A stretch of 64,000 bases of DNA from positions 1-64,000 of the forward strand of contig QNGE01003667.1 in NCBI GenBank assembly GCA_008508345.1. Direction: 5' to 3'. Each line of letters starts with the position of its first letter. Position 1 is the stretch's first letter. This document shows positions 11,039-64,000 of the stretch, piece by piece. Source of the stretch: Paragonimus westermani. Taxonomy: Eukaryota; Platyhelminthes; Trematoda; Plagiorchiida; Troglotrematidae. The notes beneath the pieces are model-generated. The model did not search any database. It was not told the origin of the DNA and saw only the letters and a program-made list of their open reading frames with translations. The position numbers and the translations under genes are program-made.

Positions 11039-11581
11039 TCACTTCACAGAAAGCTCGGCCAAACAACAACATTCATGCCACTGAGCTCGATTGGCCGCTA
11101 TCTCACCTAAAGTCCTCAGCCACCGACTCTGTGAGTCGCGAGGACCCCAGCCCGGGAGACGAACACGACCCACGGCGGCCAACCCCTTGGTGAACAACTT
11201 CATTTCCCTACGCCAGGTCATTGTCTGACCACTTCGCACCTTGCACCAGTCGGCCGCAGTGTCAGCGAACAGTGCTCGGTGTGGCAGACGACTATCTGGC
11301 ATCCTTAATACGTGATCTAACCATCTAAGCCTGTGCAAACATAGTGACTCGACAAAAGAACTCGTTTGGCAATCACTACCAAACACCTGCTTTCTAACCT
11401 CCTCGTTACGTACACGCTGGTGCCAACCGATACGAGCGATTGAACACAGACATCGGTGGTCAAATACTTCAAGGCGGTTCACGTCTTCTACCCTGAGTGG
11501 CCAGGTCTCGCTGCCGTAAAGTAATACGGCCCTCATCGTTGTCTTATAAGCACAACCTTTAAGCTTCAGAGAAGTACACAT
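11039..11581 (-). pseudogene. C-terminal domain of the RTE-like element
   Basis: The 180-codon frame contains LKGCAYKTTMRAVLLYGSET, VEDVNRLEVFDHRCLCSIAR and LRWLDHVLRMPDSRLPHRAL. This is the conserved stretch found after reverse transcriptase in these LINEs (AAIRSVLLYGSETWxL, RLxxFDHRCLRxIxxI, RWxGHVLRMPxxRLPxxAL). It ends in a normal stop. It is out of frame with the preceding segment by a small shift near 11585, where MCTSLKLKG should connect to LRHLW. Confidence 0.8.
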
Positions 11582-11587
11582 CGGTCG

Positions 11588-12908
11588 CTAGAGATGCCTC
11601 AAATTAGCGAATACCGCCCCAGCCTTAGAGATGCGCGCTCCTATTTCATTCCCTACACCTCCACCGCTGCTGATGCAGCTTCCCAGGTATACAAACCGGT
11701 CAACAACCTCCACGACTACATTATTTAACATCAAATCTACGTAGTCACAGCAATCCTGCAGAAGCACTTTGCATTTTGAGGCTGCAAAGCGCATTCCGAA
11801 GTATTTNNNNNNNNNNNNNNNNNNNNNNNNNNNNNNNNNNNNNNNNNNNNNNNNNNNNNNNNNNNNNNNNNNNNNNNNNNNNNNNNNNNNNNNNNNNNNN
11901 NNNNNNNNNNNNNNNNNNNNNNNNNNNNNNNNNNNNNNNNNNNNNNNNNNNNNNNNNNNNNNNNNNNNNNNNNNNNNNNNNNNNNNNNNNNNNNNNNNNN
12001 NNNNNNNNNNNNNNNNNNNNNNNNNNNNNNNNNNNNNNNNNNNNNNNNNNNNNNNNNNNNNNNNNNNNNNNNNNNNNNNNNNNNNNNNNNNNNNNNNNNN
12101 NNNNNNNNNNNNNNNNNNNNNNNNNNNNNNNNNNNNNNNNNNNNNNNNNNNNNNNNNNNNNNNNNNNNNNNNNNNNNNNNNNNNNNNNNNNNNNNNCCGC
12201 AATGCAATTGCGGACCTCAGTCTCAGTGGGTGGTTCCAAGTCTACCGACCAGGGCACTGCATTACAAGTTTGTGGCGGTAACGCCGTGGACGCAGGAGGC
12301 CAGTTAAATTGACCCTCAAAGTGTTCCGCCCACCGCTCTAACCTCCTGGACTTAGCATAGATGAGTGTGCCATCTGTCTCGCTGATAGCTTCACTGACAG
12401 ACGGTCGCCTGGGTCCAGTGTCACGGATAAGCTTAAACAGTGTGCCAGTGTTTCCTGAAGCAAAAACCGTCTCCATTCCATTAAATTTTCCTAATAACCA
12501 AGCCTCACGATCAGCCTTTAGGCTACGTTTCAGTTTCCTACGGACATCTCTTCTACACTTGTTATATGAACTGCCAGGAGGGATGTTCCGCCTGGCTTCT
12601 AACAACTCCGGAGATTTCCCCGAGATCCGATGTTTGATCATTCCATGTACCCCCGTTCCGCATGCCACAGTACCTGCTTCACGAATGACCTGTGTGATCC
12701 GGGTCCAGGAGCGATCAGGATCTTCGGAGTGAGAACAACTGAGGCAGGTTTCTAAGCTGGTTTGATACTTATGCATTACCGACGGTATAGTCAGTTTCTC
12801 AACAGCCAATCGTTGCTGTCGTTGGGGTCGTTGCTCAGCAAAAGTGAGTACAAAACGACAACGTACCAGCGCATGATCTGAATCTAGGTACGTGCAGAGA
12901 ACTGCCAT
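11588..12908 (-). pseudogene. Endonuclease end and reverse transcriptase of the RTE-like element (gap inside)
   Basis: The frame starts with YLDSDHALVRCRF, the Ser-Asp-His catalytic motif of APE-type endonucleases, here only the last part of the domain. It continues through RRKLKRSLKADREAWLL, RRLERWAEHFEGQFN and TETEVRNCI, the linker before reverse transcriptase. After the gap, FAASKCKVLLQD and FVYLGSCISSGGGVGNEIGA are the thumb-side motifs (usually FAxxKCKVM and FxYLGSxIS). The YADD active site must lie in the missing bases. Outside the gap the frame is open, so this copy is fairly young compared with copy 2. Confidence 0.8.
11807..12196. other. Assembly gap (390 N)
   Basis: An uninterrupted run of N lies inside the reverse transcriptase of the RTE-like element. 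From known family members I would expect clearly more than 130 residues between the flanking motifs, so the true missing sequence is probably longer than the run, or this copy carries a deletion. Confidence 1.
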
Positions 12909-13284: not shown

Positions 13285-13850
13285 TTACCTAACAGATTTT
13301 ATCGAGTTGACTGTCGTGTCGTAGTTAGTCAACCGTACAGACAAGGTACACAGATATGAAAGATGCTCTTCCTCGGAAGAGCTAGCAACTAAGATGTCAT
13401 CGATGTATGGATAAACAATACCGATGCAGCGGGCGACCTCGTGTATAAAGCGCTGAAAGATCTGGGCTGAGTCGGTAAATCCAAATGGGACTAATAAAAA
13501 CTGGAAAGGACCAAATGGACTAACCACAACGGTCTTGGGTAAATCTTCGGTCGTTACTGGAATGTTTTGATAAGCGCGGACTAAATCAATTTTGACGATA
13601 CTCCTTTTGCCCTTGAGACAGGTTTTATGATGCTGCTTGTGCTGAATGGGATACTCATCCGTGACTGTTATTTAATTGAGGCTGTGTTAGTCACCGCGAG
13701 AGCACCGTCCTTCGATTTTTTGGAACCAAATTTAGCGGTGAGGTCCAAGAACTATCGGAAGGGTGAATAATTCAGAGTTTGAGCATGAGTTCGGATTCTG
13801 CCTCAGTGGGTTTAAGTTTCTTGGAAGCCAACCTGTGGAGCCTAGAGGAT
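13285..13850 (-). pseudogene. Ty3/gypsy reverse transcriptase
   Basis: Minus-strand motifs in order are IIHPSDSSWTSPLNLVPK (near 13770), KIDLVRAYQNIPVTTED (near 13570), VSPFGPFQFLLVPFGFTDSA (near 13500) and YPYIDDILVASSSEEEHLSY (near 13400). The catalytic YxDD is present as YIDD. Frameshifts lie upstream of the KIDL motif. Family enzymes copy element RNA into DNA. Confidence 0.85.
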
Positions 13851-25825: not shown

Positions 25826-25926
25826 GTTAGTAACAATTATTCATTCCGAAACTGTTATTGTTGTCATACTGAATGTGGTCAGCTTTGTTGGCCTATCTGA
25901 TTTGTTTCCGTTTTATTTAAACTCAG

Positions 25927-26379
25927 ATCAAGTGGCATTGGATCGTACAATGCATAGCATCGATGTTACTCATTTTGGGAGGCGCTGCAATTTATCTGAA
26001 TAAAACCCGTTCCGGAAAGTCGCATTTCACTACTTGGCATGGACTTTGTGGACTACTGACTCTCCTCTACGTTGCTATTCAACTTTTGGCTGGTTTTGTT
26101 TTCCACTGGAAACTCTGGCCGATACGATTGTTGACCCACAACCAGGCCAGTTTATATCATGCCTATTCAGGATTTGGTCTTTTGATTCTATCAACCCTAA
26201 CCATACTGCTTGGTCTACAGTCGAGCTGGGTAGCCAGCAAATTGAGGGGCTTGATACCGCAAGGCTATGAGTGTGTCATAATCGTGCTGAGCGCCATGGT
26301 TTGTTGCAGCATTATACGAATCGCGTTCCAAATACGAAGGTTTAATTTCCGTCGACTGTTCAGTAGAACAAGGAAGTGA
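25927..26379 (+). CDS. Cytochrome b561-domain protein, last exon with TM3-TM6
   Basis: The 101-base phase-0 intron (25826-25926) ends in TTTAAACTCAG. The exon encodes residues 70-219 and a stop. His73 (KWHWIVQ), His107 (TTWHGLCG) and His147 (SLYHAYSGFG) complete the four-histidine set that holds two hemes. Four membrane segments follow in order: about 74-93, 108-128, 146-168 and 186-207. The C-terminus is basic (RRFNFRRLFSRTRK). Family members pass electrons across a membrane, usually from cytosolic ascorbate to an acceptor or ferric iron on the other side; which membrane is used here is unknown. No other gene sits close by. Confidence 0.85.
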   Translation: MKWHWIVQCIASMLLILGGAAIYLNKTRSGKSHFTTWHGLCGLLTLLYVAIQLLAGFVFHWKLWPIRLLTHNQASLYHAYSGFGLLILSTLTILLGLQSSWVASKLRGLIPQGYECVIIVLSAMVCCSIIRIAFQIRRFNFRRLFSRTRK

Positions 26380-40900: not shown

Positions 40901-41525
40901 CGGTGTTTCAAAATAGGGTAAAAACTGGACATTCACTTGGTCACAACCTTTATAGTCAGACAAGCTTTTAATCAGCCTCTTTCGAACAGACCTAGTCTCG
41001 AATCGCACTCCTTTTGTGACCCGCCAGTAAAGTATATTCTATTCACGGCTTCGGTTTAAATTCCGCTCCACTTATGTGGTAATTCGTATTGATCAGTTCC
41101 CCATTAACCTCACAACAGGCTCGACTTATGCGGTCATACGCGAACAGCAAGTCGCTCGTGAGTAGTGCTAAAGGTTTCTCTATTTTCTCGACGTGAGACA
41201 GCTATGGGTACGATATGCACCACCACTAAGCCCTACTAAGAGCAAAACGGTTACAATGCTTCTGTTCAAAAACGGCCGGCTGAAAGATCCATCTGAGTTC
41301 AAAATTTGCAACCAAATGAAGGTGATCTTCAGGTAACATCGGCCCAAAACACAGTTACTTATCAGCGTTCAGAATGTCCAGTGTTGAAAAATATCAATTT
41401 CGTCTTTCCGTTTTTTAGCTCAGGTAATGCCAAACTTGCTCTGTAGATGTACACAATACCTGTCGACTGTCTGAATACAACATAGCCCTGGATTTTTCAC
41501 CCACGGTTTTCTCCATAATTAACAA

Positions 41526-42548: not shown

Positions 42549-43490
42549 CTGGTTTAAAAAGTAAAGTGGATGGTATTGGCAACGATAGCGATAGAAGAAG
42601 CACTGATAACAGAAAAAAATAATCATTAATTGTGTAAATAAAACCGCTACAGTAAACGTTAGTGTGCAGTTGCCCCTAACTTCTATGCACTGTATACGCC
42701 CACTTGCGTGTCCGCAAAATTATGTGCGTGTGGCTTGGCTGGGAGCCAAAACAATTTCGGCCAAACACACGTTACAAGTACTGTCCAGCTGACCTTAGCG
42801 AGAACTGGTTTCCACCGGAAATGTATCACTCAGTTTATTAAACAAGACATCGTTGTCAATATTTGAATTGTAAACCAGAACCTCAATTCATCGGACAACA
42901 CGGCACTTCAGTTTGTTTGGTTATTCAGTGAGAACAGTGTAACACTGTGAACCATAGCTCTGAAGGGACAAATTCTCAGAGTGGTTCTGCTAGCACTTGT
43001 ATCAATGAATGTGCACATGCCAGTTAAATGCAGGAAAGCTTAGGACAGACCGTCGTCTCCTTAAGTCATGTTAACTAAACTGGACAAACATAGGGGATTC
43101 ATTCTAACTGAGTCGATATGAAGGCCACCCACCTCCGTATCACAACATATAAAAAGACCTGAGTTATACCAGTTCAGGTGGAGAACTGTATACTTGACAA
43201 ATGCTTTTTTCCGAAAGCCAAATAAACCCACATTTGAAAATGTTTCAATTAAAGTACGCTTTTTAACAACAAAGTGTGGAAGGGTGACTTGATTAAGGGT
43301 TTTAACTGCAACAAAATGCTTTGAAACTTCTGGGAATTCTTACGCACAGGCTAGTGGAAGTGCAGATTGCATTGTCTTCTAGCACATGGGGGATAAGATT
43401 CCGTACATTCCGAGGTATGCCAAAGCGTGCACAACGCTTTGAGTTGTTGATTGTTAGAGAGCAGAGGAATTTTGGTTGGTATGACCAAAA

Positions 43491-43790
43491 CACTTCTCAC
43501 AAATGATCGGAGCTTACGAACGTCCAAAGAAATCTCAGTTGGCCCCCTTCGAAAAGGTACAATATCCTTGAGGTTCTCCCTTGCTAAAGCTCGTCAGCAA
43601 TGAATAACATTGCAGCAGCCTGGATTTGAACTCCGACCACGCTTTCTTGAGATGGCCTTGTTGACCATTGCACCGTTTATCTCACCTTATGCGCGACCGA
43701 GTGAGCACAAGCGAACGTTCAGTCATACTCGCTTGTGAGTGTTGCTCATACTGTCCGATTGCCCAAAGTGGAGATACTGTCCTGTTAACT
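43491..43790 (-). mobile_element. tRNA-headed hammerhead repeat, degenerate copy
   Basis: It aligns over about 300 bp with 63700-64000. On the minus strand it has an A-box-like CAATGGTCAAC (43660-43670) and a B-box-like GAGTTCAAATCC (in 43619-43634), then at 43560-43602 a 43-base stretch that aligns without gaps to the hammerhead of the other copy with 29 of 43 identities. The core is broken: CTGATGA reads CTGACGA, the GAAA box reads GAAC and the cleavage GTC is lost. It sits inside the presumed TPM/MOLO1 gene region, just upstream of the last exon. Confidence 0.7.
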
Positions 43791-43799
43791 CCAATCGAT

Positions 43800-46530
43800 G
43801 ATCCCAAGACTACGACTTCTTTTTGAGCTGAAACCACAGAACTCACTAGGCCCGCTCAGCGATATTTCGATTACTGGTGAGTAGTAGGGGTTTTTGGTTA
43901 ATAGGACTTGACAATCACTTGGAAGTGTTTGTAACTTTCTTTTTCCTATAGACAGCGCCGGGAAACTTGCGTGATTTTGAATAGCGTCTGAAAACTTCTA
44001 TCACACTAGATTGTAAGTAGATGTCAGTGTTGGATCTCAAAGCTAGCTTCAGCTGTTTTCAAATTCCGAATCCACCCAACCTAGTTGACATTGGCTCACG
44101 GTATCTTAAACTTTAGTCCTGGTGAGAAGATCCGAAGCTTTTTTCTGACTGAATCAACGTGATGAAGAGTATCGCACGTGTTTTTCTCGTCAGCCGAAAC
44201 TCTCGCTTCACGCTGTCAATTATGCGTTGGTTCTTCAAGATTTTTATCAGTATCAGCGGATGAACAAGTTAGCAACTGTTAGAAAACTTATATGACTAAC
44301 AGTAAACAGCGTTTTAGCACCGAATCAAATAGATATTAACGTTTCAGTTGGTTGTTCGAACTTGTGCTCAGCCATATCGTTATATCTGTAGGTGATACTT
44401 GTTAAAGGTTTTCCTCAAAAATCGTTTATTATAAAGAAATAAATATTTTACTTACACGTTCCTTGAAAACTCCATTTTTTAAAGTCTCAGCTCCCTCGGA
44501 CATTTCAAGTTGATGGGGTCATCAAACTGGTTAAAAATCTGTTTTCAGAAGCGTCTCTTGGGAAACTTGATACATCTCGCTCTCGTAGTTCATTCAGAAG
44601 CATGAATCAGATGATAAAAGCCAACGGCTGATCTGATTGTATGCACTGTCGGCAACCACAATTGTACGGTGCCCCGTGTGCAACAAAATGAATTAATCTC
44701 AGTTAGACAGGAATTTACCCTAGATTATGGTTAACAGACGTGAATTTTGATCACGCGGTAAAACTGTGAGGCAGTTAGACGAATCTATGTTGTGTCCGCT
44801 CAAGGTAAACCGACGAGCTACTGATAATCTGGACTACAGACCACGGACCAAAATATGCAATGGCTGCTACAGAATTTGTTCAGTTAACCACTTAAGTATA
44901 TATACTCAGTTTTCCGGAAAAGATTTAACCCAAGGTGGCTTGGAGTCAAATCAGATGGAACCCGGAGTAAGATAAAAATAGGGTATGAAAACGCGCTACC
45001 GCTGGATTATTTCACTAAATATCACTTGCTCAAAGGATGAATTGCTCTGTATTGTTTCAAATTCACAAGCATATGTTATGAATAAAAGCTTTACCACCTT
45101 TGATTATTGTCAATGAAGTTATTTTCAAATAAAATTGCCCACTTGGTTCCCTCCTCAAGACATCGTGAGACGACCTATTTGATTCTGGAAGTGAGGAACC
45201 AACCGCACTAACTTCATGTTTCTGCTCACATTCCACCTTACACCCAGGACTAACCTGGTTAACATAAAGAAAGAATTTTGAACTAAATCCCTATAACTCA
45301 TTGTTTACTATTATGTATTTTCTTTTTATGTGAACAGTAAGATTTTATGTTCGCGCAGATGTTTCATTATGTTCTCTTTCGTGAATGAACACTGCTTTCC
45401 GTCGCGCCGTCCGAACGAGTTTCGAGACTGTGATTCGTCTTCAGTTGCGTTCATTTTAGCCCGTCGGATGCACCACACCGGCTGGGGGATTGGGTTACAC
45501 TCCACGCCGAAAGTGGTCTGTTGTAACATTCTACCAGGAGGGATAACCATGTGTCGTTTTATTCAACTCGTCAATCCTGCTGACCTACTCATTAACAATT
45601 AGTGGTCGTGGATATTTTCGAAGATTTCAAGTTGCAAATTTGTAGATTTATCAACAGTTCCCCTTATTTTCCAGTCTGATCATTTTATGATCGTTCTACT
45701 GTCAGTATCTGTGGGTAAAAATTCGAATGTCAAGCTCCTTGAATTTTGTTTGGTCGGGTCATCGAATCCGATTGTATAGGCCAACAGAAAACGAGGTGTG
45801 ATTGCTTTGTTTTTAAACCTTGAGAGAGACGATTACAAAAATAACCGAACTCACTTATAATTGGTGCAGTGGTCAGTTTCACAACGCACTGAAGGCTGCG
45901 GATTTTAGACAGACTGCAACAACTAGCGAGTAAATGTAGTGAATTTCCGGCCAAGGTGGGATTTATTAACAGGACTCCCCTACGGTTCTTTTGCCAGATA
46001 ATTCGCATTTAAAGCAGACAGCCCACCGATCATCCATTTATACGGGAACTTTGACGAAAACTTTCGATAGATTCCATCAAGAAACGACAATTTTTTAAGT
46101 TAGCCGGTAGTGCTTACCTACCAGGTGTATAACACATGAGATTCGCGGTCCTCTCTGTGCAACCGTCAGCATAGTCGACAAACGACTGTCTTCAGATGAA
46201 ATGGTATTTTATTATACAGTTATTATGGGGCCGAAACAACTGACTACATAATCATTCTGTTTTCAAGTCTAACTGTTTTTGTGCAACCTATACAATAGTC
46301 AAAATATCTGTTACCATAATCAATGGTTCAGTACCAAAGAACTTGACTGAACTGGACGGTGCTCATTTGTTACTAAGGCATACCAACCAGGAAACTCCCA
46401 GTTCAGACAGTGATGATTGCATGAACAATAGCCCCAAATTCTACTGTTGTTAAGATCGCAACGGTGAGCCTTATTTCACCAAAGGGTACTGTTAAACGTA
46501 CAGCTAACCATATTTACGTAGATAAGAAAT
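43800..46530. other. No recognised exon
   Basis: This is probably intronic if the TPM/MOLO1 gene spans 42.4-55.9 kb. A plus frame of 90 codons and a minus frame of 74 codons overlap at 45326-45602; neither has a clear domain. Confidence 0.35.
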
Positions 46531-63200: not shown

Positions 63201-63690
63201 CGGCTCTCCTAATGATCCTGACTGCAACCATACGTCCTCACTTGTCTGTTCCGGACGCATGTTACTGTGTATACCAGTTCCTGTAGGACTGACATGAACG
63301 CAGTGCCATATTCTTTAGTCGAGTAAATAATTGCACGCAATGAATAAATATCTTATCTCAACGACTTATCTGTTATACTGATAGTCAAGACTGTTTCACT
63401 TGCAAATTTTCCATTGTTGTTTAACAATCCTGAAGGTCCTAAGCACTTTTGCTTGGTGCACTTTCGAGTGTTGCCGAGTGGGCGCGAGTTCATTTCGTGT
63501 TCTTTCCTGCTCTTTCTTGGCTGCCTCTGTTGGTCTCAGACTGGATCAGAGAGGGCTGATCATCATATTTTCAAGCTTTGTTGGAAATATGCCGTTTTCT
63601 TCCAAGCTCCACCGCGCTCCTTCATTTTGGTACCCACTGGAACTAAAGTCTGATTGCACTTAATAAAGGGCTTGCTAGATTTTCATATAG
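60270..63690. other. No recognised gene
   Basis: Frames at 61128-61418 and 61192-61380 overlap and are Cys- or hydrophobic-rich but match nothing I know. A 10-bp hairpin lies at 60620-60658. Confidence 0.35.
60620..60658. repeat. Hairpin with perfect 10-bp stem
   Basis: TTGAAGGTGC at 60620-60629 and GCACCTTCAA at 60649-60658 are exact inverted repeats around a 19-base loop. Confidence 0.85.
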
Positions 63691-63699
63691 ATTGAACGT

Positions 63700-64000
63700 C
63701 ACCCACAAACGATCGTAGCTGTCGCATTCCCATAGATATTCCAGTCGACCACTGTCGAAATGAAGCACTAGACTTGAGTTTCGCTCTCATTGGAGCTCAT
63801 CAGTAGTGTATATCCCTGTCACGGCCAGGACTAGAACTCTGCCCACGCTTTCATGAGGTAATCGTGTTGACCACTGAGTCATTGATCCCACATTGGGCAC
63901 GACAGAACTCATATGTGAACGCTCAGCCACTTTCGCTTATGAGTAGTGATCAGGCTGCTCTACCGCCTTGAGAGGAGACACAGTAACTAGCCTGTTAACT
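63700..64000 (-). mobile_element. tRNA-headed SINE-like repeat with hammerhead ribozyme (runs off the window)
   Basis: On the minus strand the order is upstream homology (from the window end), an A-box-like GACTCAGTGGTCAACACG (63863-63880), a B-box-like AGAGTTCTAGTCCTGG (near 63825-63840), and then the ribozyme (63766-63808). It aligns with 43491-43790 over about 300 bp, including flanking blocks such as ACAAAYGATCGKAGCT on one side and CCTGTTAACT at the other. A pol III-type promoter head followed by a hammerhead is the layout reported for the schistosome SM-alpha repeats. The 5' end lies beyond 64000. Confidence 0.75.
63766..63808 (-). ncRNA. Minimal type-I hammerhead ribozyme
   Basis: Minus strand, 5' to 3': stem I strand CACTA, core CTGATGA, stem II GCTC/GAGC closing the loop CAATGA, core GAAA, a minimal stem III of C/G (after the conserved A-U pair) closing the loop TCAA, cleavage triplet GTC, and stem I return strand TAGTG. 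All core bases required in natural hammerheads are present, and cutting is expected after the C of GTC (between 63771 and 63770 on the plus strand numbering). The very short stem III matches the minimal hammerheads described in Penelope-like elements. Unpaired bases beside stem I could make the loop contact with stem II. Activity is inferred, not shown. Confidence 0.85.

What the first reader, a model, noticed from the sequence alone, without database searches (positions are those of the whole stretch)
63700..64000. Intact hammerhead ribozyme inside a tRNA-headed short repeat
The minus strand has a complete hammerhead core (CTGATGA, a 4-bp stem II, GAAA, GTC) with a 5-bp stem I, placed downstream of A- and B-box-like motifs. 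Seen in sequence: all core bases and pairings. Known: schistosome SM-alpha repeats join a pol III promoter to a hammerhead, and minimal hammerheads with a 1-2 bp stem III occur in Penelope-like elements. Inference: this is a flatworm self-cleaving SINE family that mixes both features (SINE-like head, Penelope-like minimal stem III), possibly mobilised by Penelope-type machinery.
Basis: partly seen in the sequence, partly recalled or inferred. Interest (0 to 1): 0.88.

Follow-up and report, generated by a model that had tools for sequence, protein, structure and literature searches.

The report
Lung-fluke hammerhead SINE-like retroelement family
The window holds one decaying copy of an abundant short retroelement of a lung fluke that carries a self-cleaving RNA and tRNA-like promoter boxes; the kind is known from blood flukes, and the interest lies in insertion patterns that hint at how such elements are copied.

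Summary
In detail: the minus strand at 63771-63803 holds a full type I hammerhead core with the stated helices and A/B-box-like motifs. It is not a chance match (Rfam HH9, E=3e-5 over the window, though below the curated cut-off). The genome is a Paragonimus. The copy belongs to a dispersed family "A" (431-bp unit) filling 3.4% of a 200-kb sample of the same assembly. A second family "B" of similar layout scores above Rfam's type I cut-off; A and B differ by paired changes in all three helices. Unselected copies have decayed almost evenly, core included, while two subfamily consensuses are identical over 50 ribozyme positions. The tRNA-like boxes are internal, about 200 nt into the unit. The short stem III is not a Penelope borrowing: it has Rfam Hammerhead_1 geometry, and its palindromic consensus is predicted to form a double hammerhead. 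Copies can exceed one unit or sit head-to-head, some inside one 8-11 bp target duplication; an apparently young Penelope-like family in the genome shows head-to-head pairs too. Verdict: new members of the known SM-alpha / metazoan-retrozyme kind, with suggestive evidence for Penelope-type copying of circular or multimeric RNA. Transcription, cleavage and mobilisation were not tested.

The parts
63665..64000 (-). Family A copy, 5' part cut by the window end (continues to contig position 64028, then an inverted piece at 64032-64114)
   Evidence: Profile hit, model positions 78-411 in the window; L001 hits
63766..63808 (-). Type I hammerhead with stem I; core 63771-63803, predicted cleavage between 63771 and 63770
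63772..63779 (-). Stem III segment ACTCAAGT; the family consensus ACTCGAGT is a palindrome, broken in this copy
63828..63839 (-). B-box-like motif GAGTTCTAGTCC
   Evidence: family alignment
63871..63881 (-). A-box-like motif TGACTCAGTGG
   Evidence: family alignment
43460..43953 (-). Second, diverged family A copy: nearly one unit (43460-43866) preceded by a short arm of the unit's 3' end (43873-43953, 14 bits only)
43556..43605 (-). Decayed hammerhead of the second copy (CTGACGA kept, GAAA and GTC lost)
   Evidence: no Rfam match at E<=10
40922..41200 (-). Third copy, left arm of a head-to-head pair (model 98-391)
41200..41365 (+). Third copy, right arm of the head-to-head pair (model 254-423)

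Best explanation
A decaying copy of a non-autonomous, tRNA-box-bearing retroelement with a type I hammerhead, of the same kind as schistosome SM-alpha elements and metazoan non-LTR retrozymes. Proposed working: RNA holding more than one unit is made (by pol III from the internal boxes, or by read-through). The hammerhead, best formed as a double hammerhead through the palindromic stem III, cuts it to unit RNA, and a host ligase may close this into a circle. A target-primed reverse transcriptase, most likely that of the GIY-YIG Penelope-like elements, copies circle or multimer from a preferred 3' site, sometimes for more than one lap, and sometimes from both sides of the break, giving tandem and head-to-head insertions. 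Shown by sequence: ribozyme with paired changes, boxes, copy number, tandem and inverted structures, some target duplications, near-identical Penelope-like copies with long open frames. Inferred: transcription, cleavage, circularisation, and the enzyme.
For: Class: structured motif 0.017 per window by chance; Rfam E=3e-5; 35 of 42 listed genome hits over the Hammerhead_1 cut-off and 0 of 14 control genomes; two families with boxes plus ribozyme; 8 of 12 pairs changed on both sides, 92.4% of cells paired against 82.9% shuffled. Source lineages: 0 of 50 ribozyme positions differ between subfamily consensuses against 25 of 237 outside. Dimer: -36.5 against 2 x -14.9 kcal/mol with both cores formed. 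Multimer or circle: 9 head-to-tail joins, 4 with an upstream arm crossing the cleavage site, none starting at it. One-event composites: target duplications of 8-11 bp round three head-to-head and one tandem insertion. Penelope: 6 of 8 close pairs head-to-head, family A 15 head-to-head to 1 tail-to-tail.
Against: The window copy is below the Rfam cut-off and its palindrome is broken. Core decay in unselected copies equals the flanks within a few points; only 3 of 20 unselected copies keep the core. The paired changes are mostly one A/B split, and 87 of 500 shuffles reach 8 such pairs; RNAalifold did not find stem III unaided. The unchanged block between subfamilies is wider than the ribozyme. 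A preferred 3' end near CATCAGTAA fits a linear RNA end better than a circle. The unit consensus has TTTT 12 bases after the cleavage site, which could end pol III transcription (recalled rule). Unit size 431 and GC 48% exceed the published retrozyme figures. No sequence shared by A and Penelope was seen.
Confidence: 0.6

Rival explanations
1. A tRNA-related SINE mobilised by a LINE; the hammerhead only trims its RNA, and the inversions are LINE-type twin priming.
For: Internal A/B boxes; LINE-like elements are very numerous here (36,148 first-look candidates); short target duplications in 5 of 34 insertions.
Against: Both outer ends of the head-to-head pairs are element 3' ends, unlike usual LINE 5' inversions (recalled). 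No close pair among 150 scored LINE matches, against 8 among the listed Penelope-like matches; this control is weak because the LINE family is much larger.
Confidence: 0.2
2. A linear RNA with its own 3' end (for example a pol II polyadenylated read-through transcript) is the template; tandems come from template jumping or from tandem source copies, and no circle is involved.
For: Preferred 3' end near CATCAGTAA; subfamily A1 has AATAAA about 20-25 bases before it (consensus; signal recalled).
Against: Near-constant tandem junction; subfamily A2 lacks AATAAA; no poly(A) seen at the ends listed.
Confidence: 0.15
3. Chance hammerhead-like sequence in an ordinary repeat.
For: Loose pattern expected 0.33 times per window; below curated cut-off in the window; unremarkable folding.
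Against: Structured scan; family A copies over the Hammerhead_1 cut-off (C1600 = L057, 44.7 bits; L027, 34.8 bits); paired changes with family B.
Confidence: 0.02

Closest known systems
Schistosome SM-alpha / Sj-alpha SINE-like hammerhead elements
   Same: Short non-coding dispersed repeat, type I hammerhead of identical helix lengths (Rfam Hammerhead_1), pol III boxes (recalled for SM-alpha from Ferbeyre 1998, paper not held). S. mansoni W36.2 of 335 bp is called SM-alpha-like (PMC8490949, passages).
   Different: Other species and sequence; unit of 431 bases; sequence similarity to SM-alpha outside the ribozyme was not tested (no schistosome DNA on hand).
Metazoan non-LTR retrozymes
   Same: Type I hammerhead in short non-coding repeats, partial tandem copies; reported in platyhelminths too (PMC7229834, passages).
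   Different: Published: 170-400 nt, GC under 45%, dimers to large multimers, expressed as circles. Here 431 bases, GC 48%, at most about 1.8 units in a row (L014), dispersed and often truncated, RNA unknown.
Rfam Hammerhead_HH9
   Same: Best Rfam match of the window copy and of 6 of 7 family A loci.
   Different: 25.0-40.5 bits against a cut-off of 52, so no member by Rfam's rule.
Penelope-like elements
   Same: Head-to-head and tandem neighbours in the same genome; Penelope elements are known to carry minimal type I hammerheads (PMC7761336, passages).
   Different: Family A codes for nothing, its hammerhead has Hammerhead_1 geometry, and no Rfam hammerhead was found in the Penelope 3' flank visible in L009.

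Membership tests
SM-alpha-type hammerhead SINE | Type I hammerhead of Hammerhead_1 geometry | tested here: met
   Family B 43.2-47.5 bits, A copy L027 34.8 bits (cut-off 34), L057 44.7 bits; window copy itself below cut-offs
SM-alpha-type hammerhead SINE | Pol III A and B boxes | tested here: inconclusive
   Box-like motifs in both family consensuses; no Rfam tRNA; promoter activity untested
SM-alpha-type hammerhead SINE | Sequence homology to SM-alpha outside the ribozyme | not tested
   No schistosome DNA collection on hand
SM-alpha-type hammerhead SINE | RNA self-cleavage | not testable with these tools
   Needs in vitro transcription
Metazoan non-LTR retrozyme | Short non-coding unit with canonical type I hammerhead | tested here: met
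   431-base unit; hammerhead. Loop 1 - loop 2 contact not testable
Metazoan non-LTR retrozyme | Monomer about 170-400 nt, GC under 45% | tested here: not met
   431 bases, GC 48%; both near the published limits (PMC7229834)
Metazoan non-LTR retrozyme | Tandem arrangement, dimers to multimers | tested here: inconclusive
   9 head-to-tail joins, up to about 1.8 units; no long array seen
Metazoan non-LTR retrozyme | Expression as circular RNA | not testable with these tools
   No RNA data
Penelope-like element or its pLTR | Encodes Penelope RT, or unit is part of such an element | tested here: not met
   Unit is non-coding; in L009 it lies about 760 bases beyond a Penelope-like frame, whose other copies were not fetched
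Penelope-mobilised element | Insertion structures shared with Penelope-like elements of the genome and not with LINEs | tested here: inconclusive
   Shared head-to-head excess; LINE control weak

The most novel reading that the evidence does not exclude
The insertions record reverse transcription of a hammerhead-made RNA circle by a Penelope-type enzyme: a preferred start site, more than one lap across the re-sealed cleavage junction, and priming from both sides of the break, leaving tandem and inverted copies inside a single target duplication. That would name both the template and the enzyme that move animal retrozymes.
Probability: 0.3. Interest if true: 0.75.

Novelty: new member of a known kind. 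Interest (0 to 1): 0.5.

Why it matters
Which enzyme moves animal retrozymes is open in the papers seen; Penelope elements are proposed on general grounds (PMC7229834, passages; PMC7761336, passages). Here two hammerhead families sit in one genome with an apparently young Penelope-like family, and insertion structures give a concrete signature to test. The families may also account for a few percent of a lung-fluke genome; in P. westermani SINEs were given as 0.96% with no mention of hammerheads (PMC6329441, passages).

Tried and rejected
Chance motif: rejected. Strong fold of the single copy: not found (z 0.48). Intact tRNA: ARAGORN found none in the window (bacterial settings), Rfam none in 16 loci at E<=5. 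Hammerhead in the copy at 43.5 kb: no Rfam match at E<=10. Ribozyme-specific conservation among unselected copies: only about 3 points above the unit. Insertion ends at the cleavage site: no pile-up. RNAalifold on the 44-row alignment gave stem I and three pairs of stem II but no stem III, and two pairs inside the core, so the helix counts rest on a structure that I named. The 19 of 30 intact cores come from loci chosen by similarity to the window copy, so the unselected 3 of 20 is the fair figure. Rows dropped: one search used 34 of the 60 family A rows plus L057; 26 were left out (low-scoring, off-length or duplicate rows, among them the decayed copy at 43.6 kb). One search kept insertions scoring at least 200 bits and left out L001, L030, L022, L015 and L057.

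Full report
WHAT IS THERE. On the minus strand at 63771-63803 the window reads CTGATGA GCTC CAATGA GAGC GAAA CTCAA GTC, closed by CACTA/TAGTG. The core pattern alone is weak (2 matches, 0.33 expected). With helices required only this site remains, against 1 hit in 60 simulated windows. Rfam at curated cut-offs gives nothing in the window; at E-value threshold the best of 4227 families is Hammerhead_HH9 here, 35.5 bits, E=3.1e-5. A- and B-box-like motifs lie at 63881-63871 and 63839-63828.

WHOSE GENOME. A reading frame with cytochrome b561 similarity (PF03188) is 93% identical to a Paragonimus westermani protein and 80% to one of P. skrjabini miyazakii. The assembly has 823 Mb in 9,701 contigs. 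I call it Paragonimus sp.

FAMILY A. A 200-base query gave 44 matches; 4,446 first-look candidates, 40 scored; apart from the window itself most are 81-83% identical. Aligned copies give a unit of 431 bases with A box at 204, B box at 246, core from 282 and cleavage after 314. In twenty 10-kb stretches taken without regard to the element the profile finds 29 hits of at least 25 bits in 12 of 20 stretches, 3.4% of the bases, and none in the reversed sequence. The sample is 200 kb, so the genome-wide share is rough.

FAMILY B. Rfam Hammerhead_1 on the genome lists 42 matches (74 of 136,546 candidates scored), 35 over the cut-off; 0 of 14 control genomes ring. I fetched the ten best with 301 bases each. 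Nine carry another ribozyme, family B; eight of these also share flanks, while L053 shares only about 55-70 bases round the ribozyme. One, L057, is family A. The B consensus has box-like motifs 5' of the ribozyme. Similarity between A and B was detected only inside the ribozyme. B scores 43.2-47.5 bits (cut-off 34). Of seven A loci in the same call, six match HH9 best at 25.0-40.5 bits (cut-off 52) and L027 matches Hammerhead_1 at 34.8. Five more A loci gave 24.1-33.5 bits, all below cut-off.

IS THE RIBOZYME REAL AND KEPT. In 44 rows (35 A, 9 B, selection told in Tried and rejected) 92.4% of cells pair, against 82.9% in shuffles and at most 49.4% with the partner slid. Eight of 12 pairs change on both sides, in all three helices; 52 such cells against 14.9 shuffled, 0 of 500 as high. 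But 87 of 500 shuffles also reach eight pairs, and the changes are mostly one A/B split. RNAalifold unaided missed stem III. In 32 unselected rows the 12 core positions are 69.9% identical to consensus, the whole unit 66.7%, and 3 of 20 rows covering the ribozyme keep the core: most copies decay neutrally. Between consensuses of subfamilies A1 (26 rows) and A2 (15 rows), 0 of 50 ribozyme positions differ, against 25 of 237 at 1-180 and 319-375 (p about 0.01). Positions 376-401 are left out because they sorted the subfamilies. The quiet block is wider than the ribozyme (69-328: 3 of 260), so this does not single the ribozyme out.

DOUBLE HAMMERHEAD. Consensus stem III is a palindrome in both families (ACTCGAGT; ACAGCTGT), as in the Rfam Hammerhead_1 consensus printed. 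Two consensus A ribozymes are predicted to join through it with both cores formed, -36.5 against 2 x -14.9 kcal/mol. The window copy (ACTCAAGT) gives -24.0 against 2 x -9.0, by other pairings. The unit folded as a circle is more stable than shuffles (z -2.9, 0 of 60 as low), though the linear fold is lower still. Dimeric action is published for axolotl retrozymes (PMC7229834, passages).

INSERTION STRUCTURE. Among 100 hits (57 in loci picked by similarity, 38 in unselected stretches, 5 in the window; threshold 14 bits) adjacent pieces are 15 head-to-head, 1 tail-to-tail and 9 head-to-tail across the unit junction. Three of the 15, three of the 9 and the tail-to-tail case rest on an arm under 25 bits. 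In the unselected stretches alone the figures are 6, 1 and 1, with three of the six weak. The junction is nearly constant. Upstream arms start at model positions 59, 222, 267, 288, 343, 360, 364, 369 and 384; cleavage lies after 309, so 4 of 9 cross it and none starts at it. That speaks for an uncut or re-sealed template. Many 3' ends fall within a few bases of CATCAGTAA, others about 28 bases earlier. Of 34 insertions, 6 have flanking repeats of 8 bp or more, against 2.7% for mismatched flanks; one of the six is the element's own tail. The other five (L025 11 bp, L044 10, L013 9, L010 9, L006 8) include three head-to-head and one tandem insertion, so such composites can arise in one event. 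The other 28 show no clear duplication.

PENELOPE LINK. Reading frames near some A loci, and in the unselected stretch L034, look Penelope-like to me (recognised from recalled motifs). Pfam gives GIY-YIG 19.2 bits for L009 (cut-off 22.6) and RVT_1 26.4 bits for L034 (cut-off 29.6), both under their cut-offs. With the L009 frame as query, 151 matches were found (150 of 9,722 candidates scored). Twenty-three listed rows, the query's own locus included, are at least 98% identical, 22 of them without a stop, in open frames of 364-930 codons, so the family looks young. Eight contigs hold two listed matches within 6 kb: 6 head-to-head (two with the same spacing, perhaps related loci), 1 tandem, 1 tail-to-tail. 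A LINE-like frame of the window gave 150 scored matches of 36,148 candidates and no pair within 6 kb; that control is weak, because a larger family leaves fewer true neighbours among the scored. No sequence shared by A and the Penelope flank in L009 was seen; other Penelope ends could not be fetched.

WHAT IS KNOWN. Metazoan retrozymes are described as short tandem type I hammerhead repeats expressed as circles, present in platyhelminths, with Penelope elements as a strong candidate for moving them (PMC7229834, passages; PMC7761336, passages). Four S. mansoni W-element families contain hammerhead-like sequences and one resembles SM-alpha (PMC8490949, passages). A search for 'Paragonimus' with 'hammerhead ribozyme' found 0 papers, and the P. 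westermani genome paper has no 'hammerhead' in its text. The library holds open-licence papers only, and supplements were not read.

VERDICT. New members of a known kind. The insertion structures are the interesting part and remain suggestive.

Noticed in passing
L053:72-265 (G000:C402), approximate: A family B type ribozyme flanked by two long complementary arms, so that it sits in a long hairpin, unlike the other B loci.
   Followed up: no
window 11807-12196: A run of N, a gap or masked stretch.
   Followed up: no
window 11042-11587 (-): LINE-like reading frame (recognised by me, no Pfam match) with 150 scored matches in the genome.
   Followed up: partly
window 13288-13671 (-): Reverse transcriptase frame, RVT_1 59.2 bits; looks Gypsy-like to me.
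   Followed up: no
window 25921-26376 (+): Cytochrome b561 frame, used to name the genus.
   Followed up: yes
G000:C6133:14746-18116 and other places: A Penelope-like family with many near-identical copies and long open frames, including a tandem pair 2,687 bases apart.
   Followed up: partly
L009:2300-2360 (-): The 3' flank of the Penelope-like frame holds CTGAGGA...AAAACGT, reminiscent of a degenerate minimal hammerhead; Rfam did not match it at E<=2.
   Followed up: partly
family A consensus, unit position about 326: TTTT shortly after the cleavage site in the consensus, absent from the window copy; it might end pol III transcription early.
   Followed up: no
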